In this document: one piece after another, positions 1 to 56,336 of the stretch
How positions within the stretch are numbered: position 1 is the stretch's first letter
Layout of the letters: each line of letters begins with the position of its first letter
From: Caprella mutica
Lineage: Eukaryota > Arthropoda > Malacostraca > Amphipoda > Caprellidae
Direction of reading: 5' to 3'
Assembly: GCA_947561585.1 (NCBI GenBank)
Contig: CANNZV010001465.1
Coordinates: forward strand, 1-64,000
DNA length: 64,000 nt
The notes under the pieces: model-generated
Databases searched by the model: none
What the model saw: the letters and a program-made list of their open reading frames with translations, nothing else
Told to the model about the DNA's origin: nothing
Program-made: the position numbers and the translations under genes

Positions 1-39
1 ACAATTGTTTATATATAAAATATTTATTATAAACAATTG

Positions 40-454: not shown

Positions 455-630
455 TACATTTCATTTACTTACACTTCATTTACATACATTTCATTTACAT
501 ACATTTCATTTACATACATTTCATTTACATACATTTCATTTACATACATTTCATTTACATACATTTCATTTACATACATTTCATTTACATACATTTCATT
601 TACATACATTTCATTTACATACATAAATTT
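455..630 (-). repeat. 15-bp minisatellite, inverted arm
   Basis: The reverse complement of the 40-300 array (unit TACATACATTTCATT on the + strand), about 11 units. With 40-300 it forms a large imperfect inverted repeat with a spacer of about 155 bp. Confidence 0.95.
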
Positions 631-29225: not shown

Positions 29226-29674
29226 TCAAATGAGTAAGTGGCAACTTATGCTTTCCTCAAAGCTAATTTATTCGCATAACACTTTTCAGTTCAAATCTTG
29301 TTTCAAGTGTGTTACGTGTTGAATGTGAACGCTCCTCAATACCATTTTAGTTTAAGTGCAAACAATAGCGTTATATGCCTTTAATATTATTATCGCTGCC
29401 GATCGATTATTAATTATTTCCATTAATAAATTGATAAATGTCTGCCTAAATATTCTAAAATATTTGTGATTGATAGTTTGGTGGCTTTATATTGGTAGTT
29501 ATTTGAAGAGCTGATTATCAGTATATAACTTTTATAATAATAAATTTTGATTACTGCCTTCCAGTTTGTAAACTGATATCCAAACTAATTTTCCTAAATT
29601 ATTATATGTTAACTTATTTAAGCATCATACCTACCTAGCTGTTTTTATTTTTTCAGTGTCAATACCTTCTACAT

Positions 29675-30143
29675 GGGGTACGGTCAAGAGCCCCCCCCCC
29701 CCCCGGTCAAGAGCCCCCCGGTCACGAGCCCCCCCGGTTATGAGCCCCCCTAGGTCATGAGCCCCCCCCCCCCCCCCCGGTCACGAGCCCCCCCCCTCCC
29801 TGTTTTTCCACCCTTATTTACCTAGTTAAACAAATGAAGAATTACTTAGATAGAAATAAGTGAGAGTTACTAATGTAGTTTGTTGTATCCGCTAGTTTGT
29901 TGTACTGCATACTTCATGATTGTTTAATGATCTGGCAGGGGGGTTCGGGGGCGGCACGCCCCCCGATATACATGAATTTTATGTCTCTTCACTAATGAAC
30001 TACAAAAGTGTCAATAAGGATTAAATAGTATAGGTAAATAAGGATTTAAAAACAGGGGGGCTCATGACCGGGGGGGCTCTTGACCGGGGGGGCTTATGAC
30101 CTAGGGGGGCTCATGACCGGGGGGGGCTTATGACCTACACCCC
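29675..30143 (+). mobile_element. Foldback element FB1: shared core with GGTCAWGAGCCCCCC arms
   Basis: Starts GGGGTACGGTCAAGAGCC and ends, reversed, GGGGTGTAGGTCATAAGCC. The flanks TTCTACAT and TGCTACAT match 7 of 8. Each arm is a short tandem of GGTCATGAG followed by C runs, inverted between left (29681-29812) and right (30054-30138). CTGTTTTTCCACCCTTATTT at 29800 and AAATAAGGATTTAAAAACAG at 30033 continue the stem. The core 29871-29970 (GTAGTTTGTTGTATCCGC, CTTCATGATTGTTTAATGA, CTGGCAGGGGGGTTCGGG) recurs in FB2 and FB3. Confidence 0.85.
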
Positions 30144-30186
30144 TGCTACATAGGCTAGGCAGTTACTGCGCTGTCCTCAGAATAGG

Positions 30187-30350
30187 GTAAGTTCCAAATT
30201 ATCAGGCTATTTCAAATTTTCGGTCACGTATGAAATATAGTATATAGCTACCTAATAGCTAATTAAAATAAAAGTTAATTTAATATAGTTTTTCTTACGC
30301 GACCGAAAATGTGGAGCCGTCCGATATTTCGGAACTTATCCTAGTATCTT
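30187..30350. mobile_element. Small MITE nested in the hAT-type element
   Basis: About 165 bp with roughly 40-bp inverted ends: GGGTAAGTTCCAAATTATC and, reversed, GGATAAGTTCCGAAATATCG, each followed by ATTTTCGGTC. Related ends occur at 4772, 23429 and 44827. Confidence 0.75.
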
Positions 30351-30619
30351 AAGTTAAGTGGTCTGATAATCTATATATTTTAAAACTAGTTGGTGTACCT
30401 ATAGGTAGGGTTACACAGCCAAATTCGGTTCTTTAATTTCTAATTGTGACCCTATTAAGAGAGTCTCAAAATCATTCTGAAATTAGTTTAGTTATATACT
30501 GAATTGTTGAACATCATAATTTAAGCTCAATTTATGATAGGTTCTATTCATGTTTCTGAGATAAGAGACCGCAGTTAGTTAAAGTGCCGCAATTTACCTA
30601 CTTGACCCTAGTTTCTATG

Positions 30620-31309
30620 ACTGGGAGAACTCCATCCAGGGATTTAGCAGGGAGAACTCCAACCAGAGGTGAGCCTTTTGATATATTATACTTTCTTGGT
30701 ATTTAATTAAAGTCTACATTATGAGTTTATAATGAACAAAATTAGCTAGAAAAATCCATTGCATTTATTAGAGCTAAATTTATACTGCATCTGAAGATTT
30801 ATAATTAGTTTAACATTTTATATAAATAATTTAATTACCTATATGAAAGAATTCTCAGTTAATAATTCTTTTCATTTATTTATTAATATATGGTTTTCTA
30901 TATTTTCTGAATTTACTTTCAGATCTTCATGAAGAATTGATGAAGTAGATCAACGTCATTAACTATCGGAGTCCTCTTCAATTCCTTTGAATGGTTCAGG
31001 AACAATTATGCTAGGTCAAAGTAAGTATTTGAAAATATTAGATGATTTCTAAATATGTATTTGCAATATGATTAGCTCTTACTTTTTCATATGCTCTTAG
31101 GGATTCCAGACATGAAAAGAATATCGAAGCTGTCGCTATCTCATCACAAAAGGAAAAAGAGTAGGTGATGTTATTGATAATGTATATGAACGATACTGTG
31201 AATTTCTATTCAATATATATTAATATACGAATCTCTTATTTCAGGAATTGGCAACCTACAGTCGTGAAAGAAAGAGACGAGAATTCAAATTAAACTTCTA
31301 AATAATAAA
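30620..31309 (+). other. Candidate small spliced transcript inside the hAT-type element
   Basis: Four possible exons: end of exon 1 at 30668 (CCAGAG|GTGAGC), exon 2 30923-31020 (TTTCAG| ... |GTAAGT), exon 3 31101-31160 (TCTTAG| ... |GTAGGT), exon 4 from 31245 (TTTCAG|), with AATAAA at 31304-31309. An ATG at 31008 reads through both junctions in phase (A|GG and A|GA) to TGA at 31265-31267, giving a 31-aa basic peptide with DMKRISKLSLSHHKRKK. Splice motifs and phase agree, but the peptide is unrecognised and short; it may be a captured gene piece, a long non-coding RNA or chance. Confidence 0.3.
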
Positions 31310-31544
31310 TCTAAAACTTAAATGTTTATATTTCGTTTTCAATTTGACCTTGGTAATTCTATTAGCATATTTCAATATCAGTGCCTATGAGTAAGATGAA
31401 TTGCACTAAAATATGGTTTAGAAGATAAAGGCTTTATCATTAATTTATTATTCATTAAGTTATATGTATAGTGACTGAAAAAGTCTTGTAAAAAGTCTGG
31501 CTACTGCTAACCAGACCGATATTTCAACCTACACTATAATAGTT

Positions 31545-32010
31545 GATATACATTTACTTAGTTTACAAGTAGTTGATATAACCAACACGAGAAGATGATA
31601 TAACCTACACGAGTAGTTGGTATAACCTACACGAGTAGTTGGTATAACCTACACGAGTAGTTGGTATAACCTACACGAGTAGTTGGTATAACCTACACGA
31701 GTAGTTGGTATAACCTACACAAGCAGTGGGTATAACCTACACGAGTAGTTGATATAACCAACACGAGTAGTTGATATAACCTAACCGAGTAGTTGATATA
31801 ACCTACATGAGTAGTTGATATCACCTATACGAGTAGTTAATGTAACCTATACGAGTAGTTAATGTAACCTACACGAGTAGTTGGTATAACCTACACGAGT
31901 AGTTGGTATAACCTACACGAGTAGTTGGTATAACTTACACGAGTAGTTGGTATAACCTACACAAGCAGTTGGTATAACCTACACGAGTAGTTGGTATAAC
32001 ACATAGGAGT
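31545..32010 (+). repeat. 22-bp minisatellite
   Basis: About 21 units containing AGTTGGTATAACCTACACGA with GT completing 22 bp, more diverged toward both ends, fading by about 32100. Inside the hAT-type element. Confidence 0.93.
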
Positions 32011-32504
32011 GATTGGAGAAACATACACAAGTAGTTGATGTAACCTTGTTCTGTAGTTGTTTTAACCATTACATATTATTGGTTCAACCATCACGAGCAG
32101 TTTTGACTATCACAGGTAGTTGTTGTGACCATCGGGAATTAAAAATAATCAACTCACATATGTGTTGTTTTAACCAACGTCAATTTAACTCATATTAAAT
32201 AGTACCTGCAACTCACCACGTAGGTAGGCGCACAGATAAACCATAAAATTTAGTCAAAACCAATCAAATATGATTTGATTCAACTAATCCTTTCTCTGTG
32301 TGTAATACTGTAAGATATTGTATACTTTTATGTGACGGTGAATATTTATATATTCTGACATACAATCATGTATAGAGACTATGAGTTATATTGACCGATT
32401 AAAGTACATTGAATATAATTATTTTGTGATACCTAGATATCACAACCAATATTTACCAAACACATTGACGAATTATAAGCGTGTGGACGTGTACAGTGTG
32501 TCAC

Positions 32505-34695
32505 TGTGATGATGTACTATCAGAGAAAAGAGTCACTGTGATGATGTACTATCAGAGAAAAGAGTCACTGTGATTATGTACTATCAGAGAAAAGAGTCAC
32601 TTTAATGATGTACTATCAGAGAAAAGAGTCACTGTAATGATGTACTATCAGTGAAAAGAGTCACTGTGATGATGTACTATCAGAGAAAAGAGTCACTGTG
32701 ATGATGTACTATCAGTGAAAAGAGTCACTGTGATGATGTACTATCAGAGAAAAGAGTCACTGTGATGATGTTCTATCAGAGAAAAGAGTCACTGTGATGA
32801 TGTACTATCAGAGAAAAGAGTCACTGTGATGATGTACTATCAGAGAAAAGTCACTGTGACGATGTACTATCAGAGAAAAGAGTCACTGAGATGATGTACT
32901 ATCAGAGAAAAGAGTCACTGTGATGATGTACTATCAGAGAAAAGTCACTGTGACGATGTACTATCAGAGAAAAGAGTCACTGTGATGATGTACTATCAGA
33001 GAAAAGAGTCACTGTGATGATGTACTATCAGAGTAAAGAGTCACTGTGATGATGTACTCTCAGAGAAAAGAGTCACTGTGATGATGTACTATCAGAGAAA
33101 AGAGTCACTGTGATGATGTACTATCAGAGAAAAGTCACTGTGACGATGTACTATCAGAGAAAAGAGTCACTGTGATGATGTACTATCAGAGAAAAGAGTC
33201 ACTGTGATGATGTACTATCAGAGTAAAGAGTCACTGTGATGATGTACTCTCAGAGAAAAGAGTCACTGTGATGATGTACTATCAGAGAAAAGAGTCACTG
33301 TGATGATGTACTATCAGAGAAAAGTCACTGTGACGATGTACTATCAGAGAAAAGAGTCACTGTGATGATGTATTATCAGAGAAAAGAGTCACTGTGATGA
33401 TGTACTATCAGAGAAAAGAGTCACTGTTATGATGTACTATCAGAGAAAAGAGTCACTGTGATGATGTACTATCAGAGAAAAGTCACTGTGAGGATGTACT
33501 CTCAGAGAAAAGAGTCACTGTGATGATGTACTACCAGAGAAAAGAGTCACTGTGATGATGTACTATCAGAGAAAAGAGTCACTGTGATGATGTACTATCA
33601 GAGAAAAGAGTCACTGTGATGATGTACTCTCAGAGAAAAGAGTCACTGTGATGATGTACTATCAGAGAAAAGAGTCACTGTGATGATGTACTATCAGAGA
33701 AAAGTCACTGTGACGATGTACTATCAGAGAAAAGAGTCACTGTGATGATGTATTATCAGAGAAAAGAGTCACTGTGATGATGTACTATCAGAGAAAAGAG
33801 TCACTGTTATGATGTACTATCAGAGAAAAGAGTCACTGTGACGATGTACTATCAGAGAAAAGAGTCACTGTGATGATGTACTATCAGAGAAAAGAGTCAC
33901 TGTGATGATGTACTATCAGAGAAAAGAGTCACTGTGATGATGTACTATCAGAGAAAAGAGTCACTGTGATGATGTACTATCAGAGAAAAGAGTCACTGTT
34001 ATGATGTACTATCAGAGAAAAGAGTCACTGTGACGATGTACTATCAGAGAAAAGAGTCACTGTGATGATGTACTATCAGAGAAAAGAGTCACTGTTATGA
34101 TGTACTATCAGAGAAAAGAGTCACTGTGACGATGTACTATCAGAGAAAAGAGTCACTGTGATGATGTACTATCAGAGAAAAGAGTCACTGTGATGATGTA
34201 CTATCAGAGAAAAGAGTCACTGTGATGATGTACTCTCAGAGAAAAGAGTCACTGTGATGATGTACTATCAGAGAAAAGAGTCACTGTGATGATGTACTAT
34301 CAGAGAAAAGTCACTGTGACGATGTACTATCAGAGAAAAGAGTCACTGTGATGATGTACTATCAGAGAAAAGAGTCACTGTGATGATGTACTATCAGAGA
34401 AAAGTCACTGTGACGATGTACTATCAGAGAAAAGAGTCACTGTGATGATGTACTATCAGAGAAAAGAGTCACTGTGATGATGTACTATCAAAGAAAAGAG
34501 TCACTGTGTTGATGTACTAGCAGAGAAAATAGTCACAGTGATGATGTACTCTCAGAGAAAAGAGTCACTGTGATGATGTACTACCAGAGAAAAGAGTCAC
34601 TGTGATGATGTACTATCAGAAAAAAGAGTCACTGTGATGATGTACTATCAGAAAAAAGAGTCACTGTGATGATGTACTATCAGAAAAAAGAGTAC
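32505..34695 (+). repeat. 32-bp satellite with higher-order 190-bp period
   Basis: About 69 units containing GTGATGATGTACTATCAGAG and AAAAGAGTCACT. A 30-bp variant lacking AG (AAAAGTCACTGTGACG) recurs at 32941, 33131, 33321 and 33701, steps of 190, 190 and 380 bp, so blocks of five 32-bp plus one 30-bp unit were amplified together. It ends close to the right subterminal region of the hAT-type element. Confidence 0.95.
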
Positions 34696-34917
34696 TATCA
34701 GAGTTAACAGTATAAATTATTAGTTTTTAAATTGTATAGTAAATGTACTTGGTACTTCAAAGTACTTTAAAAAGTACTTGGTACTTGTACTTTGAAAGTA
34801 CTTTTTTATTTGAGTACTTGGGCAACTACTTCAAGTACATTGATTTACGAGTACTTGTACTTAGTACTTAAGTACTTTCGATGTACTTTTTGCCCATCTC
34901 TGCCTATTTCATTTATA

Positions 34918-35010
34918 AGGACGTGAACAAGGAACTGATCCAAATACCCCCTTCCTAGTTCACTTCCCTAATTGATTTAGAGGCGCAAAGTAGGAAGGGG
35001 GTATTTTTAA
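34918..35010. other. Palindromic DNA flanking the hAT-type insertion
   Basis: GGACGTGAACAAGGAA at 34919 is the inverse of TTCCTTGTTCATGTCC at 28266, so the hAT-type element entered the loop of a short hairpin. Just beyond, AATACCCCCTTCC (34946) pairs with GGAAGGGGGTATT (about 34995). Confidence 0.7.
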
Positions 35011-35045
35011 ATTAATTTTTCGTAAATTTAATCACCTTTTACATG

Positions 35046-35520
35046 ATTAAACTAGATTATGTGCACTCGGTAGAGCGCATACCTTCGCCCCCGCTTATCA
35101 GTTTGCTACTAAAATCTAAGAAACTGGTAACTGGATAGTGACCAATCGACTCACCAAGTTTCATGCAATATGGTTCAATACTTTTTGAGTTATAAATGAC
35201 CTTTATTTGTTAGAATACTTTTGGAGTTATCGAGTTGTAAATGGCCTTGACCTTGATCTTTGAACCGATCGCTCCCAAAATCTAACAAAATGGTTCCTGT
35301 ATATTGACCAATCGTCCAACCAAGTTCCATGCATTATGGAACAATACTTTTTGAGTTATAAATGACCATGACCTCGACCTTTGACCGAGTCGCTCTCAAA
35401 ATCGTTTCATCAAATTACAGGCAATTTGGTTGAGCACTTTTTCAGCAATGCGAATAACATGACAAATAAATAAATAAATGCAGTCAATAATATATACTTC
35501 CCTTATTCTGCGGAGGTAAA
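35046..35520 (+). repeat. Dispersed repeat R, near full-length copy
   Basis: Begins CTAGATTATGTGCACTCGGTAG with a tRNA D-arm-like stretch, then tandem-like text on GACCAATCG, CCAAGTTTCATGCA, TTTTTGAGTTATAAATGACC and TTTGACC, an AAATAAATAAAT tail, and a terminal GCGGAGGTA that is nearly the complement of TACCTTCGC near the start. It could be a tRNA-derived SINE or a MITE; I cannot decide. Other copies: 7018-7195 and 60473-60925. Confidence 0.75.
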
Positions 35521-35529
35521 TAATATTGC

Positions 35530-36780
35530 GCTAAGATATATTAATTGAGAGAAAATCTAGTACCTTAACTACATAATAATACCAAAAAAGAAATTGAAAT
35601 TCAGCAAATTTAACAATATCGTTAAAAAAACATTAATATGCGTTACGCTTATGCTGTCTGAATATACTAGATATGGCCCTGTCAGTTTGAGATTGGACTA
35701 CATATACTACACAAATTTCAGTTGCTACCAAACAGATACGCGTATGTCAAACATTTAGGTTTATAATAATCATATAAATGTGTAGTTACTGTAGTACATC
35801 TCATTAAAATATTATATTTTTTTATCTACTTAATTTTTATCCCTCTATCCTTTCCATACCTTGGCTATGTTGGTTTAAAACTATGGAGACAAATTGAATA
35901 TTATTAACCCAGATCCTATTTAACAAATTATTTTTTTCAACTATTTGAAAATATTTTAGGCATTTTTTAAACAACGTATTTCAAAAATATTGTTACTATG
36001 ACCAAAGAATAACATTTCAAATAAAGCAAACTACTGAAAGGGCCTAATATGTTTTCGTTCAATCCTTCCACACAATAAATTTGTCATTACATTTATATTA
36101 GTTATATCAGGTTAATAGGAAATTTCTATCTGATTGGTTACTGCGGGTCATGAAATAACTATGCAAAATAATATTCAGATAGTATATTTTGAACACATAA
36201 AAGACATGAAAATAATGACAGGTAATTACTATATCACGAGATGCAGAAAATAACCATGCAGTCATATTATGTGAACACAAAGCATATAGAAAGATGACAA
36301 CCTCCTTCAACATTATTACTTAGCCTACATAAATAAACTCTCTGTATTCTACTTTAATATGCACACTATAATGCTATTCAACTGTCATCTAATATACTAA
36401 CTTTCAGAACAGTATTTTATTACTTTGGCTTCATTGATATTATGTATAACTTATATAAGTTCAAGCATTAATTTTACCTATTCTAGTTTTTATTGAAGTA
36501 GGGTTTTGAGATAAAACTTTAGTGCACAACAAGCACAAAGAAAATGGTGAACAGAGTAGCTAGTGTAAAAAGAATAAAATTCGAAATAAACCAAAGACCG
36601 TTAAACGAATCAAATGCTACAAACTAATTTTTGCAATGAAAGTTATTCAAGAGTGAAAGATAGAAATCTAAAATTTCTCTGATAGGAAATGAACCTAACT
36701 AAAAGGAGCGGTAAACAATAAAAAGGAAGGATGGAGAATCAATCCCTATCCTAATTAATCACAGCTAAATGCCTCTTTCC
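35530..36780. other. AT-rich DNA downstream of TMBIM
   Basis: No gene recognised. The right part is the probable TMBIM 3' UTR. A TTTATT at 36489-36494 (AATAAA on the minus strand), 440 nt past the stop, is one possible poly(A) signal. Confidence 0.4.
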
Positions 36781-36789
36781 TTAACGTAA

Positions 36790-36925
36790 AAGGAATCTTT
36801 CAAGATATATCTTTAGACATCCTTTTCAAGATATATCTTTAGGTATCCTTTAAGATATATCGTTAGGTATCCTTCAAGATATATCGTTAGGTACCTTTCA
36901 AGATACATTCTTAGGTATCTTTCAG
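36790..36925 (-). repeat. About 25-bp tandem repeat in TMBIM 3' UTR
   Basis: Five to six copies of CTTTCAAGATATATCTTTAG with small changes, starting about 10 nt after the stop codon on the transcribed strand. Confidence 0.85.
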
Positions 36926-36933
36926 GAGCCATT

Positions 36934-39866
<2,933 letters not shown>

Positions 39867-40194
39867 TATTTAGTATCAATGAGAAGATATTTAGAAATAA
39901 GTTGGTAATCTGGAAGAATAAACATTGAGAGATTATATAATTTCAATGATTATCTTCTAAAATAGTTTCATGTTTAATATAATTCAACTCTGCATATCAT
40001 GTCCAGTGTCACCTGACTCTCAGATAATTTAATTTGAGATAGAGTTACTCTCAGCCCTCAGGCTTTTGCCTCTCAGTTAGCTTTATAACATATCGAATTA
40101 TTTGGACTAAATTGCTATCTGAAAATAAATCATTTCAAATCAACAAATTTTCATAATCTCCCTGACTCCATCACCCTTCAGGCCTCAGCTCCAG

Positions 40195-40345
40195 CAAGAC
40201 TGCAGGAACTGTTAAACCATTCTCCAAGAAATTCTATATTTCTGTTTCTGTTCTCATTAAAATACAAGTAAATATTAAAATATAGCTAGGAGAAAATAAT
40301 TCAAATTAAGGTTAAAATTAAATCTTAAAAATGTCCCATAATCTG
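40195..40345 (-). mobile_element. CCAGTCTGCAG-family MITE, diverged copy
   Basis: Starts CAAGACTGCAGGAACTG and ends ATCTGCAGTCTTG. The interior TTCTCCAAGAAATTC and TCTGTTCTCATTAAAATAC matches 19577-19679 and 43252-43395. No clear duplication. Confidence 0.6.
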
Positions 40346-40796
40346 CAGTCTTGCTGCTCTTGCAGACTGGCAAAGATCTTTGGAGACATATTTTGAGGGA
40401 AAATATATCTTTGTAAGATCTTGGAGACACTTTCCTAATTAATTCCTATGTTTACATGTAACATGTAGATGTATCCAGCTAGTAAAGCATGTCCAAGCTC
40501 GCCATTTTGATGATGAGTTTTTGAGTTATTTTAAGCCCTTCAGTTGTAAATGGTGCGAAATATTATCAAATATCTAATCTACAATGTTATTTTCAATATT
40601 TTGGAGAGAATTTATTATATTTGATTATTAGATAATAGATCATTTAGGAGAGAAATTTGGAGAGCTGGAAAGACAAATGGAGAGTTTACTATTTTAGTTG
40701 GACATGTATTTATTGGAGACATTTTGTAGAATTCTGGTTATTTTGGAGACAGAATTGCAGTTTGGCGTTTGCCACACTTTTCAGACTGGCTGCTGG

Positions 40797-41032
40797 CCAG
40801 ACTTCATTTCATGGTAAATTCCACCGACTTGTCGGTGGAATTTTTCTTCAGTGGAAATAATATTCTGGCAAAGTCGGTGGATTCTTAGCGATTTATTCCT
40901 ATCTTACCATTAATTTTTGGTGGAAAAATGGGTAAAATGTTGGTGGATCAGCAAAATTACTGAAAATTTATGGTGAATTTTTTCAGCTTTTACAAAAAGT
41001 CAGTGGGATTTTGTGCACCAAATACAGACTGA
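40797..41032 (+). mobile_element. hAT-type MITE, family CCAGTCTGTATTT, copy 4
   Basis: 236 bp with the perfect 8-bp duplication GCTGCTGG at 40789-40796 and 41033-41040. The interior has CCACCGACTTGTCGGTGG and GTGCACCAAATACAGACTG as in the SERINC-intron copies. Confidence 0.88.
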
Positions 41033-41170
41033 GCTGCTGGCAGACAATGTTTATTGTTTCAAAGGCTGGAAAATTGTAAGCAAATTTTTGAGCCAAAATT
41101 TCAGAGCCAAGCCAATTTGGCTCAATTTTTGAAGATTTCAAGCCAAAATTGACATGGGAACAGAGGAATT

Positions 41171-41423
41171 CCATGTTTCAAAGTGTAGCAGGAAAGTCAC
41201 CAGTTTAGAGAGAAAATGGATCCAGGTCGCCACATTTAAGATACTTTGAAAGAGAAGTTTGTCTTCAAGGTGAAGATTTTACACTTAAAAACATCATTAT
41301 ACGTCATGCCAAATGCATGAGTATCTCTCGAGACTGTTTTGGGATTGATTAACTTGTTATTTACATGTTTTTCTACTTATTTAACCACTCAATTGGCGAC
41401 TTTGTCCATACTTCAAAACATGG
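41171..41423. mobile_element. hAT-type MITE, family CCATGTTTCAAAG, copy 2
   Basis: 253 bp, CCATGTTTCAAAG...CTTCAAAACATGG, with flanks GAGGAATT and TAGGAATT (7/8). Same family as 18917-19186. Confidence 0.82.
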
Positions 41424-41737
41424 TAGGAATTAATTAAAATTTAAAGCCAATTAGATATATCTGAGTTTTGACCTATTGAAATCTAATTGGCTTTAACTGA
41501 CATTGTGACATACTCTGTAACATGGCTGGCAGACTGGATTTTGAGCACTTCAATTGCAAATGGAGACTAGAGAGAAATAGCCTATCTAATTTTATATTTT
41601 GCTATTTATTTTGGAAAGAAATTATGATGATAATTTGATAACTTTGGAATTTGGAGAGAAATTCAGCTTTACTCTTTTTCTTTTAGAGAAAACTGGAGAG
41701 TTTAGGTTTATGAGGCATGAGCCATACTATTTTAGTA

Positions 41738-41966
41738 GGGTCAAGCAGGTAAATCTAAACTGCGGCACCGGGCACCCTAACAAACTGCGGCCCCTAACAA
41801 CAGAAGCATCATGGCTTCAAAACATTCGTTAAAAAATTATATTGATAAATTATAGCATGCACTGCGCTTCTTTTGGTAGGTATGAAACATTTTAATGTAA
41901 TTTCGGTTCAGAATGTTTTAGAGACTCTTGAGAAGGCTGCAATTTACCTGCATGACCCTATTTTTA
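41738..41966. mobile_element. Possible MITE with GGGTCAAGCAGGTAAAT ends
   Basis: GGGTCAAGCAGGTAAAT at 41738 is the near complement of ATTTACCTGCATGACCC ending at about 41964. GCGGCACCGGGCACCC inside is also found, diverged, at 37959. Fragment of the same end at 30585-30602. Confidence 0.5.
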
Positions 41967-42049
41967 TTTTACTTGGCAGTTGGCATGATGATGAGTGATG
42001 ACCTATGTTAGCCTGTTAGGTAGTAGGTATATGGGCTACTAGCTATATG

Positions 42050-42266
42050 CCAAGTAAAATAGTATGTCTCATAAACTTGCCATTTGTCTCTCCAAAATTC
42101 AACAAATTCTCTCCAAAATGATCAAATTATCATTAATTCTCTCTTAAATAACATTATAGCATAGGAGAAAAATAGATAAAACTCGCCATTTGCAATTGAA
42201 GGGCTCAGAATAACTGTCACAAACTCGCCATTAAAATGGCGAGTTTGGACATGCTTTATTACTTGG
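42050..42266. mobile_element. hAT-type MITE, family CCAAGTAA, copy 2
   Basis: 217 bp, CCAAGTAAAATAGTATG...TTATTACTTGG, with the perfect 8-bp duplication GCTATATG (42042-42049, 42267-42274). Confidence 0.92.
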
Positions 42267-42765
42267 GCTATATGCAGATAATTTAGGAGAAATTGAACAT
42301 ATTTTGGTCTTTGGAGGCATCATCAATCATATTATTTTAGTAATTTTACTTGGGCAGGTCAACAAGAGAGATACGTATCTAAAAGCTGAGCGGCGCACCA
42401 GATTACGGCGCACCAGATTACGGCGCACCACTGTACATCCTATTAGATACCTAGGTAATTTGAAAGAAGATTATTGATATATGGAATGAATTTGATAATT
42501 TTTGAAGGCTATCAAATTTATGACCGACAGTATTTGAATCCATTGTTTATACTATACAGTTTAATTCTTAGATTGAGATATTTAATTTGGAATAGAAAAT
42601 AAAAAAATTCATAGAAAACTAATAAATATTATTTTATGGGGTAACTATTGTAAACTTTCTGTCTGAGGTCAGTGAGATGTAAATAAAACTGTCAGTTATA
42701 GTACATGTATGATGTATCTGCCATCTGAGGGTGCCGCACTGCCGCCCCCCAAACTCCCCTGCCAG

Positions 42766-42981
42766 CCAAGTATAATAGTATGTCTCATAAAATGATAAAC
42801 TCACCATTTGTCTCTCCAAAATTCTCTCCAAAATGATCAAATTTTCATAAATTCTCTCCAAAATAGCATTGTAGCATAGGAGAAAAACTGATAAAACTCG
42901 CCATTTGCAATTGATGGGCTCAAAATAACTGTCACAAACTCGCCATTAAAATGGCGAGTTTGGACATGCTTTTTTACTTGG
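42766..42981. mobile_element. hAT-type MITE, family CCAAGTAA, copy 3 (in FB3)
   Basis: 216 bp, CCAAGTATAATAGTATG...TTTTTTACTTGG, with the perfect 8-bp duplication CCTGCCAG (42758-42765, 42982-42989). It splits the shared core of FB3 at its CTGGCAGG box. Confidence 0.92.
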
Positions 42982-43021
42982 CCTGCCAGGTCATTAAACA
43001 ATCATGAAGTGTGCAGTACAA

Positions 43022-43420
43022 CCAGATTGTATTTGGTGAATTGGTGGTAAATTCCAATGATATGTCGGGAGATATTCAATTTCTCTAATAAAAAATTCCT
43101 GCGATGTCGGAGGATATTTAGCTATTAATTCCTATATTGCCATTAATTTTTGGAGGAGAAACTGGAAAAATGTTGGGAGGACTAGACAAATTGATCAAAA
43201 CTGTTGGCAGCTATTTCTCAGATTTTTAAAAAAAGTCAGAGGAGTTCAGTGCCAGTCTGCAGAACATGGGACATTTTTAACATTTTCTGTGCGAACAATC
43301 CTTAATTTCCTCCTATATTTACATGTATTTTACTGAGAACAGAAGCCTAAATAGAGGATTTCTTGGAGAACAGTTCACCAGTTCCTGCAGTCTGGGTTCA
43401 GTGCACCAAATACAAACTGG
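43022..43420 (+). mobile_element. hAT-type MITE CCAGATTGTATTTGG, in FB3, itself split
   Basis: CCAGATTGTATTTGGTG...GTGCACCAAATACAAACTGG, with flanks CAGTACAA and CATTACAA (7/8). It contains the 43252-43395 element. Confidence 0.85.
43252..43395 (+). mobile_element. hAT-type MITE CCAGTCTGCAG, innermost
   Basis: 144 bp, CCAGTCTGCAG...CTGCAGTCTGG, with the perfect 8-bp duplication GTTCAGTG (43244-43251, 43396-43403). The best preserved copy of this family in the window. Confidence 0.92.
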
Positions 43421-43574
43421 CATTACAACAAACTACATAACAGACAATTATGTTGAAATCATTGATAGAAGAATGTTAGTGGTGCGCCATATTGTAGTGC
43501 GCCGTTATGTGGTGCGCCGCTCAGCTTTTAGATACTGTTGACAACTTGACAAGAGATGACACTCAGTCACACAC

Positions 43575-44005
43575 CCAGTCTGCAGTTTAGGAGACATTTT
43601 TTAGTATTTTCTGTGCGAACAATCCTTAATTTCTTCCTATATTTACGTAAATTATACTGAGAGCAATTAGCAAAAGCCAAAATAACCAGTCTGCAGAATG
43701 CGTCTCTTCTCCCGCAGAGACTTTAAATTGAGAGAGAGCTGCTCTCTGACTCTCAGCAGCAGATTTAGAATCTCCCGCAGCTAAATTAATGGTAGCATAG
43801 GAATTAATTCAAAATCTCCCGCAGCTAAATTAATGGTAACATAGGAATTAATTCAAGATCTCCCGCAGAGATCTCAAATTTCTAAAATTCAATCAAAAAC
43901 TCCCGCAGAGAGTCTTGGAAAAATGCTCCATATTCTGCAGACTGGCAAAATAAGAGTATTTCTTGGAGAAGTTGAGAACAGATTATCAATTCCTGCAGTC
44001 TGGTC
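43575..44005. repeat. Mosaic of CCAGTCTGCAG-family pieces
   Basis: CCAGTCTGCAG-like ends at 43577, 43689, about 43936 and 43995, and a short repeat on ATCTCCCGCAGCTAAATTAATGG near 43770-43860. Nested or tandem MITE remains; borders not resolved. Confidence 0.55.
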
Positions 44006-44109
44006 ACACTCACACAAAACCTTCAATGTTCTGTGCTCAGTCATGAGTCATAGTAGGAGAATGTATTGGCCGAGAGTCAGGACCAGCGAAGATGCCCAGG
44101 AGCATGACA

Positions 44110-45130
44110 GGACTCGAGTAAAGTAAAAATTGGTTAGAGGAGATTTAAAAAGGGGGAGGGAAGAAGTACATATAGATACTTAACACGATTATAAAGATAG
44201 CCTAACTTCACGGACTCAGTAAATACTTCCGTGACTAACGGTGACTTTGGGTAGCAGTGACTCGAGCAGCTAGAAATTGTCTTCTTCAATGAAGTGGACG
44301 GAAAACCCTCTAATGGATATAAGAATTGTCTACTATTGCACCACATACGTCAAAGATTGCACCCGTGACTTGGGATAAAAATCCGACTAATAGATGTGAG
44401 ATGATGTGAGATCAGAGAACATGTTCAGAAGGTGAATTCATTGTTATTGAAAAGTTCCTATTATCATTTATTAGCAGCTAATGGGCTTTACATTATTTCA
44501 ACATACTAATTGTTCTTAACTGATCATTTTTATCATGATCAATGAGAGACTCAGAGAGAGTTTTTCAGCTAGGAAAATATGAAGAATATCATAATTTCAT
44601 AAATAGCCAAATTACTGTATACTCCAGTCCAGTGTCCACCACCCGAAAATCGTAACTATTTTTACAACTTTATAATTGACTTAAGTGTCCATATGAAATA
44701 GTTTCCATAGTTAATTTAGTAGGCGTCAATGAAATTATGTTATACCTAGATATAGATATTAGATTACAATTTTACATAATTAATATAACCCTATAAGTGC
44801 ACCGGTATATTAGGTAGGTATAAATTAAATATAGGGTAAGAACCGAATTATCGGACGAATCGAAATATCGGACAAATCCAGTTCAACCGCCCAAATATCC
44901 TATATATTAAACTTAATGTGACCAAGCGAAGGATAAATCAGCTGCTATATATACCATGTACAATTTAATGCATTTCAATTTCGTGAAGATCATTGACAAT
45001 GCAGAGAAATAACAGACAATTAGGTATTTTGAATCCCATTCATATCATTTTTAAGCACACGATGTTATAAAAGTGACGTAAATTGCAACAAACGTAACTT
45101 ACGACCTAACTGCTCTAGACCGCTTGGACA
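44110..45130. other. DNA without recognised gene
   Basis: Nothing coding. GTAAGAACCGAATTATCGGA at 44827 is a lone end of the 30187-30350 MITE family. Confidence 0.45.
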
Positions 45131-45137
45131 AGTGTAA

Positions 45138-46575
45138 AGCTTGTCGCCCACCTGATCGGATCGGAAACGACGCGGAAGCTTACGAAGCCTCGGAACGGAC
45201 ACGAAACGACGTTCGTACGCACACCAGTTCAGATGACTTCGGAAGAGAAACAATGCCGACATCACAATACTTGTAAGGTTGTAAGAATATAACAATTAAG
45301 AGTTAAAATTTATTGATCATGACAACTATTTTATACGATAGGTATTTGATTAAAAAAATTCAGTAGCATCGTGTTGTTTTTAATTTTCAGTTCGAATCTC
45401 TCTAATTTATTATCATACTAGTTATCATACCCCATTAAAATTAATGTTTTTTCCCCAAAAAAAATATATGTTGAAAACAATATATATAAAAACAATATAT
45501 ATAAAAAAAAATTAGTGAGAAACATATGAAAAAATTTATAAAAAAAATTATGTATAAACAAATGTATGCAAGTAAAATTTATATAAATGAAATGTATGCA
45601 AATGAAATGTATGTTAATAAAATGTATGCAAATAAAATGTATGCAAATAAAATTTATGCGAATAAAATGTATGTAAATGAAATGTATGTAAATGAAATGT
45701 ATGTAAATGAAATGTATGTAAATGAAATGTATGTAAATGAAATGTATGTAAATGAAATGTATGTAAATGAAATGTATGTAAATGAAATGTATGTAAATGA
45801 AATGTATGTAAATGAAATGTATGTAAATGAAATGTATGTAAATGAAATGTATGTAAATGAAATGTATGTAAATGAAATGTATGTAAATGAAATGTATGTA
45901 AATGAAATGTATGTAAATGAAATGTATGTAAATGAAATGTATGTAAATGAAATTCATGTAAATGAAATTCATGTAAATGAAATGTATGTAAATGAAATGT
46001 ATGTAAATAAAATTCATGTAAATGAAATTCATGTAAATATAATTCATGTAAATAAAATTCATGTAAATAAAATTCATGTAAATAATATTCATGTAAATAA
46101 TATTCATGTAAATAAAATTGATGTAAATAAAATTGATGTAAATAAAGTTGATGTAAATAAAATTCATGTAAATAAAATTCATGTAAATAAAATATGTTAT
46201 TCTTCTTAGTTATTTCAATAACTTTTCGTGATCTGATTTATAATCATTAAAGTTAATTGAATTAAACTAATTGATTATGTATTAATATCAACGTATTCAT
46301 CACGCAGTAGGATATTCACAGCTATTCCAATCTTCCATCTCCATCCCAGTCTCTCCAAATACCGTTCTGCGCATGCGCAATCTCTCGGACGCATCAGAAC
46401 TATCAGAAAAATATTCTTTCAAACATATCCGCGACGTTTCCGTTCCGATCCGACGCGTCGTTTCGTTTCCGATTCGAGCAGGTGGGCGTTAGCACGTTCA
46501 AATGTATGGTTAAGATATTTGTCTGATGCTTCGTGTCCGTTCTGATGCGTCGTTTCCGATCAGGTGGGCGACAAA
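45138..46575 (+). mobile_element. TIR element with 15-bp minisatellite interior (copy B)
   Basis: The left end CTTGTCGCCCACCTGATCGG (45139) and the right end, reversed, TTGTCGCCCACCTGATCGG, are inverted repeats continuing into GAAACGACGC. The middle is the 15-bp array. No coding capacity; the superfamily is unknown because no target duplication could be read. Copy A at 1-1199 carries the same parts rearranged. Confidence 0.8.
45590..46195 (+). repeat. 15-bp minisatellite in copy B
   Basis: About 40 units of ATGTATGTAAATGAA, very uniform in the centre and diverging on both sides (ATTCATGTAAATAAA at the right), the usual picture of homogenisation by unequal exchange. Frames of 227 and 254 aa on the two strands are artefacts. 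Confidence 0.96.
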
Positions 46576-46609
46576 CTGTTGCTCCTATGAATAACAATTA
46601 CGAAATAAA

Positions 46610-47211
46610 ATAAGGGAAATGCAATCCAAGCAAATATTTTTATTGCCTTATTCAACGAGGCTAATGTTTCTTATCATTTTGCTGCAAACCGCATCGAATT
46701 TGGTAGCATATTTTTAATTTTATATGCTTTTAAGATTTTTATAATCAAAACTCTTCAAAACCTATTTTACTTCCGACTTACTAATTTAAGAAATTTTCAG
46801 CCTGAAGAAAAAGAATGTTCACCATTTGTTTTGATTGTCAACTAGGTATTAGGTTAAATAAATCCATTTAATATTTGTGTAAAGGTATAAAATTGAATGA
46901 ACTTATAATAGAAACGTTTATATACTTTGGGAAACAATTAATATCTAAAATAAAGGCCGAAAACGCATGGTTTGTTTATAAAATTCAAATTTGTAATGAA
47001 AACAAAGTGTACAATCTTCTTCTTGAGCATCAGATTAGTGATTCTCTCAATTGTTGCTCACAGAGTATTAAAAAACTTTAAAAACAAATTATTGTAAAAT
47101 ATTTACTGAACCGAATTGTATGCAGTTTGCAGAATAATGATGCTAGTCCTTAGTTCTATAATATTATGTTTTAAACTCATTTTTTTCCCGGAGCCTGGAG
47201 AGGACCTTTAA
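46610..47211 (-). mobile_element. TTAA-flanked MITE, copy 2
   Basis: A reverse copy of 1556-2144; the good end reads GGAGAGGACCTTTAA at 47197-47211. The other end is decayed. It lacks the insertion present in copy 3. A 114-bp internal piece (46930-47045) is repeated just outside at 47213-47325. Confidence 0.7.
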
Positions 47212-47212
47212 G

Positions 47213-47325
47213 AAATAATTAATATCTAAAATAATGGCCGAAAACGCATGGTTTGTTTATAAAATTCAAATTTGTAATCAAAACAAAGAGTGTACATCTT
47301 CTTCTTGAGCATCAGATTAGTGATT
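47213..47325 (+). repeat. Partial duplicate of MITE copy 2 interior
   Basis: Matches 46930-47045 closely, for example GGCCGAAAACGCATGGTTTG and CTTCTTCTTGAGCATCAGAT. It lies directly next to the 28-bp satellite, whose birth may have involved this duplication. Confidence 0.8.
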
Positions 47326-47331
47326 CGCTTA

Positions 47332-49643
47332 CAACACATGTGTACGCTTTCATTCATTAGAACACATGTGTACGCTTTCATTCATTAGAACACATGTGTA
47401 CGCTTTCATTCATTAGAACACATGTGTACGCTTTCATTCTTTAGAACACATGTGTACGCTTTCATTCATTAGAACACATGTGTACGCTTTCATTCATTAG
47501 AACACATGTGTACGCTTTCATTCATTAGAACACATGTGTACGCTTTCATTCATTAGAACACATGTGTACGCTTTCATTCATTAGAACACATGTGTACGCT
47601 TTCATTCATTAGAACACATGTGTACGCTTTCATTCATTAGAACACATGTGTACGCTTACATTCATTAGAACACATGTGTACGCTTACATTCATTACAACA
47701 CATGTGTACGCTTTCATTCATTAGAACACATGTGTACGCTTTCATTCATTACAACACATGTGAACGCTTTCATTCATTAGAACACATGTGTACGCTTTCA
47801 TTCATTACAACACATGTGTACGCTTTCATTCATTAGAACACATGTGTACGCTTTCATTCATTAGAACACATGTGTACGCTTTCATTCATTAGAACACATG
47901 TGTACGCTTTCATTCATTAGAACACATGTGCACGCTTTCATTCATTAGAACACATGTGTACGCTTACATTCATTAGAACACATGTGTACGCTTACATTCA
48001 TTACAACACATGTGTACGCTTTCATTCATTAGAACACATGTGTACGCTTTCATTCATTAGAACACATGTGTACGCTTTCATTCATTAGAACACATGTGTA
48101 CGCTCTCATTCATTAGAACACATGTGTACGCTTTCATTCATTAGAACACATGTGTACGCTTACATTCATTAGAACACATGTGTACGCTTACATTCATTAC
48201 AACACATGTGTACGCTTTCATTCATTACAACACATGTGTACGCTTTCATTCATTAGAACACATGTGTACGCTTTCATTCATTAGAACACATGTGTACGCT
48301 TTCATTCATTATAACACATGTGTACGCTTTCATTCATTATAACACATGTGTACGCTTTCATTCATTAGAACACATGCGAACGCTTTCATTCATTAGAACA
48401 CATGTGTACGCTTTCATTCATTAGAACACATGTGTACGCTTTCATTCATTAGAACACATGCGAACGCTTTCATTCATTAGAACACATGTGTACGCTTTCA
48501 TTCATTAGAACACATGTGTACACTTTCATTCATTATAACACATGTGAACGCTTTCATTCATTACAACACATGTGTACGCTTTCATTCATTACAACACATG
48601 TGTACGCTTTCATTCATTAGAACACATGTGTACGCTTTCATTCATTAGGTACGCTTTCAATCATTAGAACACATGTGTACGCTTTCATTCATTAGAACAC
48701 ATGTGTACGCTTTCATTCATTAGAACACATGTGTACACTTTCATTCATTATAACACATGTGAACGCTTTCATTCATTGCAACACATGTGTACGCTTTCAT
48801 TCATTAGAACACATGTGTACGCTTTCATTCATTAGAACACATGTGTACGGTTTCATTCATTAGAACACATGTGTACGCTTTCATTCATTAGAACACATGT
48901 GTACGCTTTCATTCATTAGAACACATGTGAACGCTTTCATTCACTAGAACACATGATTACGCTTTCATTCATTAGAACACATGTGTACGCTTTCATTCAT
49001 TAGAACACATGTGTACGTTTTCATTCATTAGAACACATGTGTACGCTTTCATTCATTAGAACACATGTGTACGGTTTCATTCATTAGAACACATGTTTAC
49101 GCTTTCATTCATTAGAACACATGTTTACGCTTTCATTCATTAGAACACATGTTTACGCTTTCATTCATTAGAACACATGTGAACGCTTTCATTCATTAGA
49201 ACACATGTTTACGCTTTCATTCATTAGAACACATGTGTACGGTTTCATTCATTAGAACACATGTTTACGCTTTCATTCATTAGAACACATGTGAACGCTT
49301 TCATTCATTAGAACACATGTGTACGCTTTCATTCATTAGAACACATGTTTACGCTTTCATTCATTAGAACACATGTGCACGCTTTCATTCATTAGAATAC
49401 ATGTGTACGCTTTCATTCATTAGAACACATGTGTACGCTTTCATTCATTAGAACACATGTGTACGCTTTCATTCATTAGAACACATGTGTACGCTTTCAT
49501 TCATTAGAACACATGTGTACGCTTTCATTCATTAGAACACATGTGCACGCTTTCATTCATTAGAACACATGTGTACGCTTTCATTCATTAGAACACATGT
49601 GTACGCTTTCATTCATTAGAACACATGTGTACGCTTTCATTAA
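47332..49643 (+). repeat. 28-bp satellite with ACACATGTGT palindrome
   Basis: About 82 units: ACACATGTGTACGCTTTCAT plus TCATTAGA. Variants (GCGAACG, GTTTACG, CTTACATT) are clustered in runs. One deletion at about 48647. No unique spacers, so it is not a CRISPR array. Confidence 0.97.
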
Positions 49644-49649
49644 GCACTA

Positions 49650-51360
49650 GTGGGACTATTTCGATTTAAAAAATGTTTAATATGCTTAGTCTACCTATAG
49701 CAATACTAAAAGGAGATTCTATTTTTTTTATTCACGAGCAAATTAAATCAGTATTTAAAGTGTTAAATAGGTAACTGCCTATTCTTTTTTATAGTAGCTA
49801 TTATTTATCGCGGCAAAGTCTGTGATATATCATTTAATGATTAATTTTGACATTTTAATGATATTAAATTAATTAAATGATAACAAAAACAGTTATCAAT
49901 CGGAAAATTAAACCTCAAATGACTACTTAGATAACTAACAAATTCTAGTAAGGTTAACTTTCACATTTTCAGGTATAAAAAATATATATAATATTTTTTA
50001 CAACAAATATTACTCTTACAGCAAATATTTCATTCTAATTTCGCAAATTTATTACCCATTATAATTTTATAAGAAAATGGTACATAATTTGAATTTTTCG
50101 ATAAGTAATATCATGATTATAGTCCGTTACACCAAGTAATCTGTTTTTCGATTAAAATCTTCTTAAATAGGAGTGTATTTGAGAGAGTAATCACCGCGTG
50201 CCTCTGCCAGTCACATTCTCTTCTGACTTTCAACTCTCACTAATAAGCTAATCTCCACCGGCATCACGTAGAGAAAATTAATGTACAGATGTTTGTATGA
50301 GCCTTTCATATTTTCAATTGGAATACGAATCAAATAAAGGACTAGTATTGAAGAACGTACTTTAATGCGAAGTGTGTGATCAATTGACTATGTTCCATTC
50401 ATTAGGAAATGTGACAGGTTTTCAATAATTAATGAATTAAATTTATCAAAAGGGCAGTAAGTTTTTGAACCATTTTTCTATATTATGAATAAATCGATAG
50501 AGGAGCATTAATTATGAAAGAAACTGATTTTTGGTAGATATAAAAATAGTTTGTAGATATTATGTTTATCAAATGGAAGACATTTCCTAGCACTAAACGC
50601 TGCCATTTTACTTAGCAACTTAAGTTCATCTTTGATTTATTGAAACTGTGTTTGTTTAATTAAGTAGTTAATCGATTAGAGAACATTTAAGAACATTTTA
50701 AATGCTACCTAACTCATGTATATAATATATAATGATAAAGTAGATACATGTACAAAATATTAGGCATACTCCTAATATGGCTTTCGAAATTATACAACCG
50801 AATGTGAAAAATTTACCCGAATATGAAATTGAATTTTCTACCTTTCTTGTCCTTTCTTTCTTTGTCCCTTTCCTTTCTTTCATGTCCTTCCTTTCTCGTT
50901 TCCTTTCTCTTTCTGCTCCTTTCACAGACAGTAATCCCTTCCTTGGACTGTACGTCTCTTCCCAAGGGTCGGCACGGACGTTTATTGAGACGGTGAGCGA
51001 CGGCCTGTATGATATTCTCTCTGTAGCATTCTTACTTACTACAAACTAGAATAAATAAATAGAACTGGTAACTAAAAGTCATTGTAATTATAAATTATTA
51101 GTAATTACATACAAAACTACTTGAGAAAAATTGAAGTTATTAATATATGTCAACTATTTTTAAGAAACTAAAAATATAAAATGTCTGATACTCTTAATAC
51201 CATTTATCTGTATTATAGTACACATTCGATATATCAAGCATTGCAGTGTGATGCACTTAGAAAGAGTATAGTGAGATTAGCAATTAGTTGCTTAGAGACA
51301 CTAAAGTGCATCGTACTGCAATGCTATCAGCTCCTCAAACACATGTCTAAGTATAACAAA
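49650..51360. other. AT-rich DNA between satellites
   Basis: No gene. 50838-50920 is CTTTC-rich, and the 90-aa frame over it is low complexity. 51181-51350 has words AGTATAGTGAG and GCAATTAGTTGC; nothing recognised. Confidence 0.45.
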
Positions 51361-51562
51361 TTGGTGACCGGAAGAATGTCCACAGAAAAAAAACTAACAG
51401 GAAAAATCCCACAGGAAAAAGCCCACAGGAAAAATCTCACAGGAAAAAGCCCACAGAAAAAGCTCACATAAAAAAGCCCAAAACTGTCTAATATTTAGCA
51501 TAAAGCCATAATGTAGTTTATTGTGTCCACTACTTTGTTGTACCGCACACTTCAAGATTGTA

Positions 51563-53239
51563 CTGTATAACTCCTCTATAGTGAACTTCAACTAGTTCAC
51601 TATAGAGAGTTTACTTCACTATAGAGAGTTTGCTTCACTATAGAGAGTTTACTTCACTATAGAGTTTACTTCACTATAGAGAGTTTACTTCACTATAGAG
51701 AGTTCATTTCACTATAGGGAGTTTACTTCACTATAGAGAGTTTACTTCACTATAGAGAGTTCACTTCACTAGAGAGAGTTTACTTCACTATAGAGAGTTT
51801 ACTTCACTATAGAGAGTTTACTTCACTATAGAGAGTTTACTTCACTATAGAGAGTTTACTTCACTATAGAGAGTTCACTTCACTATAGAGAGTTCACTTC
51901 ACTATAGAGAGTTTACTTCACTATAGAGAGTTTACTTCACTATAGAGAGTTTACTTCACTATAGAGAGTTTACTTCACTATAGAGAGTTCACTTCACTAT
52001 AGAGAGTTTACTTCACTATAGAGAGTTTACTTCACTATAGAGAGTTCACTTCACTATAGAGAGTTTACTTCACTATAGAGAGTTTACTTCACTATAGAGA
52101 GTTCACTTCACTATAGAGAGTTCACTTCACTATAGAGAGTTTACTTCACTATAGAGAGTTCACTTCACTATAGAGAGTTTACTTCACTATAGAGAGTTCA
52201 CTTCACTATAGAGAGTTTACTTCACTATAGAGAGTTCACTTCACTATAGAGAGTTCACTTCAGTATAGAGAGTTTACTTCACTATAGAGAGTTTACTTCA
52301 CTATAGAGAGTTCACTTCACTATAGAGAGTTCACTTCACTATAGAGAGTTTACTTCACTATAGAGAGTTTACTTCACTATAGAGAGTTTACTTCACTATA
52401 GAGAGTTTACTTCTTTATAGAGAGTTTACTTCACTATAGAGAGTTTACTTCACTATAGAGAGTTTACTTCACTATAGAGAGTTCACTTCACTATAGAGAG
52501 TTTACTTCACTATAGAGTTTACTTCACTATAGAGAGTTTACTTCACTATAGAGAGTTTACTTCACTATAGAGAGTTTACTTCACTATAGAGAGTTTACTT
52601 CACTATAGAGAGTTTACTTCACTATAGAGAGTTTACTTCACTATAGAGAGTTTACTTCACTATAGAGAGTTCACTTCACTATAGAGAGTTTACTTCACTA
52701 TAGAGAGTTTACTTCACTATAGAGAGTTTACTTCACTATAGAGAGTTCACTTCACTATAGAGAGTTTACTTCACTATAGAGAGTTTACTTCACTATAGAG
52801 AGTTTACTTCACTATAGAGAGTTTACTTCACTATAGAGAGTTTACTTCACTATAGAGAGTTTACTTCACTATAGAGAGTTTACTTCACTATAGAGAGTTC
52901 ACTTCACTATCGAAGAGTTAAGAAATTCATAGAAAACTGGCTCTTTTATGGCAGGCTGCACATTTTTTTTAATTCAATGTACAGGGTATTTCATTTTTAT
53001 TAACATTAAAAATTAGGATGGTTCACTACACATGACTTCATTATAGAGGAGTTACACTAGTAGAAATCCTCTATAGTGAACTACAACTAGTGTACTTTAT
53101 AGAAGTGCATGTAACACTGATAGTCATTTTATCACACACTAAACTAAATATGTTCACCGCACAGGCTAGTTCATTACTCAGGAGTCAATTAGTCAGCGTA
53201 GTTCACTATACAGGAGTTCATTATATAGGAGTTGTACTG
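51563..53239. mobile_element. pogo-like element with a satellite interior, in FB2 core
   Basis: The left end CTGTATAACTCCTCTATAGTG and the right end GGAGTTGTACTG (reverse complement CAGTACAACTCC) match the 159-bp MITE in the SERINC intron. TA lies on both sides (51561-51562, 53240-53241). Closing the gap restores the FB2 core. The interior is nearly all 19-bp satellite. Confidence 0.8.
51599..52912 (+). repeat. 19-bp satellite derived from the pogo-like terminus
   Basis: About 69 units of ACTTCACTATAGAGAGTTT, very uniform apart from TTT/TTC choice. The unit is the terminal sequence TTCACTATAGAGGAGTTT of the host element with one G lost. Confidence 0.96.
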
Positions 53240-53704
53240 TATAGTGACCTGGCAGGGAGGTCGGGAGGCGGTACGTCCCCCGATATACGTATATCTTATA
53301 TCTGTATAAAATGAATGATTTAAGTTTCACGTTTACTGTGGCCTGTTTTCCTTGTTGTCGTTTGTACCTGCGGTTTTTTCCGTGTGGGTATCTTTCATTG
53401 TGGGCAATTTTCTTTGTGGGCTTTTTCCTGTGTGGCCATTTTTCCTGTAGATTTTTTTTCTGTGGGCATCTTTCCGGCAACCCTCGAAATTATAGTTATG
53501 TCTAGATTTTTTCTGTCTAATTATTGTATCTTGGTCAAAACATTGATTTTGAATTGGGAATAAAAATATATGTTAATAAGAAGAAAAAAAACTGATTTTG
53601 GTTCCTTTTTGAAGTGAATTTTAATATTTTGAAAAAATCGAATTAATAATAATTTTGAATATGTGATGGAAATGTTAGTATTCCTTGAAAGCATCATTTT
53701 TCTC

Positions 53705-55890: not shown

Positions 55891-55894
55891 GTTT

Positions 55895-56335: not shown

Positions 56336-56336
56336 T

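What the first reader, a model, noticed from the sequence alone, without database searches (positions are those of the whole stretch)
29675..53479. One core, three different inverted arms: elements that seem to swap their termini
FB1 (29675-30143), FB2 (51366-53479) and FB3 (42371-43548) share an internal core (GTAGTTTGTTGTA, CTTCATGATTGTTTAATGA, CTGGCAGGGG with a GC hairpin, CCCCCGATATAC). Their inverted arms are unrelated short tandems: GGTCATGAGCCCCC, CCCACAGGAAAAA and GGCGCACCAGATTAC. The core sequences and arms are seen directly; FB1 and possibly FB3 have 8-bp duplications like hAT elements. In hAT elements subterminal repeats bind transposase, so a conserved core with exchangeable arms could be a way to switch the mobilising transposase, or the core may itself be the functional cargo. 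I know of no described family with this design, but I could not search.
Basis: partly seen in the sequence, partly recalled or inferred. Interest (0 to 1): 0.8.

Follow-up and report, generated by a model that had tools for sequence, protein, structure and literature searches.

The report
Foldback transposons sharing interchangeable middle modules
In this animal genome the same 142-letter middle piece sits inside several different kinds of hairpin-ended jumping elements, and one kind of ends also occurs with another middle, so these transposons look like mix-and-match assemblies of known parts.

Summary
The shared core is real: FB1, FB2 and FB3 carry parts of one ~142-bp module, interrupted in FB2 and FB3. 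Stretches of the host genome added a C4 and a C5 form: five inverted-arm classes around one core. Between families, similarity is strong just inside the core borders and absent in the 50 bp outside. Conversely, an FB2 end query matched 39 loci: 6 (FB2 included) ran through the core, 10 stopped exactly 3 bp before it; three of those fetched share another middle. A second core recurs with other arms. Arms and middles look modular.

Corrections: duplications are 9 bp (exact in 5 of 7 FB1-family insertions; 2 lack a readable right end), with GG tips and tandem-repeat arms. That fits Mutator/Foldback elements such as Tm1, not hAT. Arms were constant within each close core lineage sampled, and FB1 and C4 arms look related, so drift contributes. 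FB1 is a passenger in a larger repeat.

Most likely mechanism (inferred): a middle is copied into another foldback element during break repair. Transposase switching is untested: the partner search did not complete. New variant of a known kind.

The parts
29675..30142 (+). FB1 element: paired arms of GGTCATGAGCCCCC-type units around an uninterrupted core; tips GGGGTACGGTC and GGGTGTAGGTC
29871..30012 (+). core I, complete, 142 bp
29685..29797 (+). FB1 left arm array
30055..30137 (-). FB1 right arm array
28632..31537 (.). part of a larger high-copy repeat that carries FB1 (95-98% over ~2.9 kb in 7 of 7 fetched copies); the right limit is set by the fetched loci
51363..53482 (+). FB2 element: arms of CCCACAGGAAAAA-type units; tips GGTGACCGG and GGTTGCCGG read by eye; no clear target duplication found
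51509..51561 (+). core I, 5' part in FB2
53238..53329 (+). core I, 3' part in FB2, with the GC hairpin
51596..52919 (.). 19-bp minisatellite (about 70 copies) interrupting the FB2 core
42370..43548 (-). FB3 element: arms of GGCGCACCAGATTAC-type units; flanking 8-bp duplication ACAAGAGA
42982..43022 (-). core I middle in FB3; 41 bp, identical by eye to FB1-family copies such as L042
42740..42765 (-). core I hairpin part in FB3 (diverged, weak match E 0.02)
43424..43436 (-). core I start in FB3 (GTAGTTTGTTGTA)
38..645 (.). another foldback element without the core, 15-bp arms TGTATGTAAATGAAA; a related copy lacking one arm lies at about 45560-46290

Best explanation
These are non-autonomous foldback transposons of Mutator/Foldback design: short asymmetric tips, arrays of 14-16-bp units as inverted arms, and a short middle. 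Shown: one middle occurs between several end classes and one end class occurs with several middles, with the step at a fixed border. Inferred: a middle is copied into another foldback element during repair of a break at its palindromic centre or at an excision gap (template switching or gap repair). This keeps the recipient's two arms matched and leaves no duplication at the core border. The arms are most likely transposase-binding arrays that also drift and change unit number like minisatellites.
For: Five arm classes around core I: FB1, FB2, FB3, C4 and C5 forms. Border step: for the first 50 bp inside the core, z 13.8 to 14.6 among FB1, C4 and FB2 families (4.5 to 5.8 for 16 bp with FB3); for the 50 bp outside, -1.7 to 0.7. 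On the 3' side 5.2 to 13.8 inside, -0.9 to -0.1 outside. FB2 5' query: of 39 loci, 6 (FB2 itself among them) run through the core, 10 end exactly at query 146 (core begins at 150), 2 at 138 and 160, 21 by 137 (loci on one contig were merged, except two far apart on C1035). Three of the ten were fetched. L052 matches FB2 to query 146 under standard scoring (81% over 36 bp, E 3e-5); L052, L053 and L054 share another middle (81% over 108 bp, 93% over 55, 80% over 55) and none has a core I or II profile hit. C5 query, by my count: 40 of 40 scored loci hold the core and reach at least 12 bp into the right array; 22 also cover the left arm, two of these being the query itself and an identical copy; 18 begin at query 89-96, where C5's match to core I begins. 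Core II is shared by E104 and E192 (E 4e-22) and weakly by E25 (E 0.005), each with other arms; E104's arms resemble those of C5, which holds core I (76% over 58 bp, E 1.5e-7). 9-bp duplications are exact in 5 of 7 FB1-family insertions; the other 2 lack a readable right end. Within that family, core 97.3% v spacers 97.8% and 94.8% identity over 21 pairs, so no special constraint on the core shows. FB1 right arms have 3 to 7 units in 7 of 8 copies of one insertion; the eighth was not parsed.
Against: FB1 and C4 arms look related (GCCCCCTAGGTC v GCCCCCTAGTC), and unit sequences resemble each other slightly more than shuffled ones (mean 7.77 v 7.48; 0 of 200 shuffles reach it; I picked units and phases), so part of the difference is drift. 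All 7 FB1-type loci fetched carry one arm class and all 7 C4-type loci another. Exceptions to paired arms: L041 and L046 lack the left arm at its usual place, L045 lost its right arm, L049 has an altered right tip. The C4-type loci and the FB1 matches tested largely share flanks. FB3 is one locus. No accepted target duplication for 8 of 15 elements: FB2, ELC, E25, E58 inner, E69, E96, C4_297, C5_5. Lenient scoring carries the L052 match to query 156, 7 bp into the core; L053 and L054 were cut too far in to show the border. each scored 40 of 901 and 2606 candidates. No empty site for the core, recombination intermediate or transposase was seen.
Confidence: 0.6

Rival explanations
1. Common descent with fast arms: one old foldback family whose tandem arms and neutral spacers diverged beyond recognition while a functional core (for example a hairpin needed for excision, a promoter or a structured RNA) was conserved.
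For: Some tips are alike: GGTRCTNGGA is exact at 3 of 12 ends of the six non-FB1 elements with duplications (E33 left, E104 left, E156 right), E58 left is one base off. FB1 and C4 arms look related; units resemble each other weakly; unit number turns over fast.
Against: The FB3 core piece is identical over 41 bp to FB1-family copies while its arms and tips are unrelated. FB2-type ends with spacer occur with another middle. Similar arms hold core I in C5 and core II in E104. No extra constraint on the core within the FB1 family, though that covers only recent time.
Confidence: 0.25
2. The core is an independent small mobile element that inserts into the centres of other palindromic elements.
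For: The left border is shared by FB1, C4, FB2 and FB3; weak inner inverted ends (TGTAGTT...AACTACA) seen by eye.
Against: No direct duplication flanks the core in FB1, C4 or FB2 by eye. L052-L054, with FB2-type ends, have a different middle, not a closed site. In 284 kb the only core I profile hits at E 5 or better were in the five foldback elements the profile was built from.
Confidence: 0.1
3. Switching of the mobilising transposase: each arm class is served by its own transposase and the core changes partner.
For: Distinct arm arrays per family; passages of PMC3573991 and PMC4079207 say that repeats in Galileo arms hold secondary transposase binding sites.
Against: Elements with different arms have 8-9-bp duplications and some share tips, which fits one transposase group. 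No autonomous element was linked to an arm class; the PF10551 search did not complete.
Confidence: 0.05

Closest known systems
Tm1, a Mutator/Foldback family of root-knot nematodes (PMC3169594; passages seen, some from the abstract)
   Same: 9-bp duplications, asymmetric outer tips, arms of 13-15-bp tandem units in variable number, several classes with different middles, one of them with a hairpin motif.
   Different: In the passages seen, Tm1 has one arm-repeat consensus with several middles. Here one middle also occurs with at least five arm classes; no transposase was linked, and the core hairpin does not look like a histone hairpin (by eye, histone motif recalled).
Galileo (P superfamily) in Drosophila mojavensis (PMC3573991; abstract and first part of the Discussion read)
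   Same: Foldback design, tandem repeats in the arms as secondary transposase sites, arm subfamilies, exchange between copies.
   Different: Its subfamilies are described as diverged from one ancestor; no shared short middle between unrelated arms is described in what I read.
TU elements of sea urchin (recalled, not read; one search found no paper holding its three terms)
   Same: As recalled: 15-bp tandem outer repeats, modular middles that are themselves dispersed repeats, 8-bp duplications.
   Different: As recalled: common arms with varied middles; here the reverse also holds.
Tetris of Drosophila virilis (PMC4079207; passages seen)
   Same: Modular non-autonomous foldback with tandem repeats in the arms, 8-10-bp duplications, suggested by its authors to be Mutator.
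   Different: Its repeats are named TIR-220, far longer units, and the ends of its arms, not its middle, are shared with another element (DAIBAM).

Membership tests
Mutator/Foldback (Tm1-like) | 8-10-bp, mostly 9-bp target duplications | tested here: met
   9 bp exact in 5 of 7 FB1-family insertions (2 without a readable right end) and in E104, E156, E192; 8 bp in E33, E58, FB3; FB1 8 of 9. None accepted for 8 of the 15 elements
Mutator/Foldback (Tm1-like) | arms of 13-15-bp tandem units in variable number | tested here: met
   units of 14-16 bp in the core I and core II elements; unit number varies
Mutator/Foldback (Tm1-like) | asymmetric short tips outside the repeats | tested here: met
   FB1 family: GGGGTACGGTC left, GGGTGTAGGTC right in most copies
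Mutator/Foldback (Tm1-like) | related autonomous element with MULE transposase, Phantom type with FLYWCH | not tested
   PF10551 search did not complete; PF04500 not sent
hAT | 8-bp target duplications | tested here: not met
   FB1 family has 9 bp exact; three other elements have 8
hAT | hAT transposase in an autonomous partner | not tested
   no search run
TU elements | sequence relation to sea urchin TU repeats | not tested
   no TU sequence at hand; features recalled

The most novel reading that the evidence does not exclude
Core I and core II are mobile middle modules that live by moving between foldback transposon lineages: parasites of MITEs that change end-pairs, and so possibly change mobilising transposase, over time.
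Probability: 0.25. Interest if true: 0.75.

Novelty: new variant of a known kind. Interest (0 to 1): 0.55.

Why it matters
Foldback elements with tandem-repeat arms are an old puzzle of transposon structure. A genome where one middle occurs with several end classes, and one end class with several middles, would let the exchange be dated and its breakpoints mapped. It bears on how non-autonomous elements outlive the transposase that mobilises them.

Tried and rejected
Considered and rejected: hAT membership (9-bp duplications). A known RNA family: no Rfam match in the window at gathering scores (no laxer search was made). Exact core-motif matches elsewhere: 0 in viral contigs, 2 in genome contigs, both in bacteria, taken as chance and not followed. 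The 40 matches as independent insertions: 7 of 7 examined share about 2.9 kb of flanks. A Mutator-like transposase gene at C4:199482-200744 as partner: its end repeats (TTAAGGG...) do not resemble the arms or tips. A first, stricter scan for inverted arrays found 3 elements only and missed FB1-FB3, so one search was used. A further weak core II hit at C4:110270-110305 (E 0.036) was not followed. Literature: the listings showed no title or abstract start describing one core with several arm classes; three papers were read in part.
Full report
Observation. The window is G000:C1465:1-64000 in a 903-Mb assembly of 7200 contigs. It encodes animal-type proteins (Serinc, BLOC1S2) and LINE proteins. 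Contig C1 looks bacterial, while C4 and C5 hold the core and have the low GC of the window. The core motifs and arms are in the sequence as detailed in the observation check. The core is one 142-bp module in FB1 (29871-30012). In FB2 it is split by a 19-bp minisatellite array and other sequence, and in FB3 by two insertions with 8-bp duplications read by eye.

More copies. In 200 kb of C4 and the first 10 kb each of C4 and C5, two more core I copies appeared (C4:297634-297751 and C5:5043-5105), each with another arm class, CTAGTCCGACGCCCC and GAGACCGAATTTTCT. A scan for tandem arrays with inverted partners gave 42 of 785 arrays at score >=17 within 3 kb, against 3 and 1 at control offsets; 19 of those rows have 14-17-bp units and 14 rows have units of neither that length nor its double. 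Two further elements, E104 and E192, share a second core (E 4e-22); E25 is a weak third (E 0.005).

Ends. FB1-family copies at different sites carry 9-bp duplications, exact in L042, L044, L047, L048 and L049; L043 and L045 have no readable right end in the stretch fetched. The left tip is GGGGTACGGTC (GGGGTATGGTC in L043, TGGTACGGTC in L047); the right tip is GGGTGTAGGTC in L042, L044 and L048, one G longer in L047 and altered in L049. E104, E156 and E192 have 9 bp; E33, E58 and FB3 8 bp. These candidates were chosen by eye, where 8 of 15 elements shared an 8-mer across their flanks against 33 of 210 crossed pairs; no duplication was accepted for the other 8 elements, FB2, C4_297 and C5_5 among them.

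Modularity. Between FB1, C4, FB2 and FB3 forms the core is alignable up to its borders and the 50 bp outside are not. Cores of the FB1 and C4 families (L048 and L040) are identical at 124 of 142 positions. The FB2 5' end as query matched 39 loci: 6 (FB2 included) run through the core, 10 end exactly at query 146, 2 at 138 and 160, 21 by 137; the core begins at 150. Three of the ten were fetched (L052-L054). L052 ends at 146 under standard scoring and at 156 under lenient scoring; L053 and L054 were cut too far in to show the border. All three share a different middle, and no core I or II profile hit is in the 451 to 601 bp held of each. L055, next to a core-bearing locus, shows no core 3' part in its 431 bp. 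The C5 element as query gave 40 of 40 scored loci with the core and at least 12 bp of the right array; 22 cover the left arm, and 18 begin at query 89-96. C5's match starts about 15 bp inside core I, so its left border is not the shared one. C5 arms resemble those of E104, which holds core II.

What weakens the case. Within a close core lineage the arms do not change: the 7 FB1-type and 7 C4-type loci fetched have one class each, with L041 and L046 lacking the left arm at its usual place and L045 the right. The C4-type loci largely share flanks, as do the FB1 copies examined, so they are passengers of larger repeats. FB1 and C4 arms look related, and the arm units are slightly more alike than shuffled ones. 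Arrays change unit number fast: 3 to 7 units in the right arm of 7 of 8 copies of one FB1 insertion. Drift of arms therefore explains part of the pattern. It does not easily explain FB3, whose 41-bp core piece is identical to FB1-family copies while its ends are unrelated, nor FB2-type ends with another middle. Only the best 40 candidates were scored in each genome search, so counts are lower bounds and the sample leans to close relatives of the query.

Mechanism. In each of the five forms the two arms match each other. One-sided exchange would give mixed ends, so transfer of the middle into a recipient element is simpler. I infer copying during break repair at the palindromic centre or excision gap. 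This step is not shown.

Comparison. The nearest described family I found is Tm1 of root-knot nematodes (PMC3169594, passages): 9-bp duplications, asymmetric tips, 13-15-bp units, several middles, a MULE transposase. Galileo (PMC3573991) shows exchange among copies. TU elements are recalled only. The structural features of Mutator/Foldback elements are met; the transposase is untested, so I call these Mutator/Foldback-like.

Noticed in passing
28632-31537: A larger high-copy repeat, starting near 28632 and running to at least 31537, with 125-bp tandem repeats near its left end (28853-29219), carries FB1 as a passenger.
   Followed up: partly
C4:199028-201466 (L019-L020): A Mutator-like transposase gene (PF20700, E 4.5e-33) between 24-bp inverted stretches TTAAGGG(A/G)ATGGTTTCCGGTATTT; looks like a short element, unrelated in its ends to the foldback tips.
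   Followed up: partly
31568-34693, 47329-49641, 51596-62825: Much of the window's right half is long minisatellite arrays of 19-45-bp units; one of them lies inside FB2.
   Followed up: no
C4:158301-159579: Concentric foldback arms: arrays of CAAAGTATCGAAAGA around a second inverted pair of GACAATTGGGCCCAA-type units, as if foldback elements insert into each other's centres.
   Followed up: partly
42049-42269, 42765-42982, 19888-20120: The insertion in the hairpin part of the FB3 core (ends CCAAGTA...TACTTGG) has relatives elsewhere in the window.
   Followed up: no
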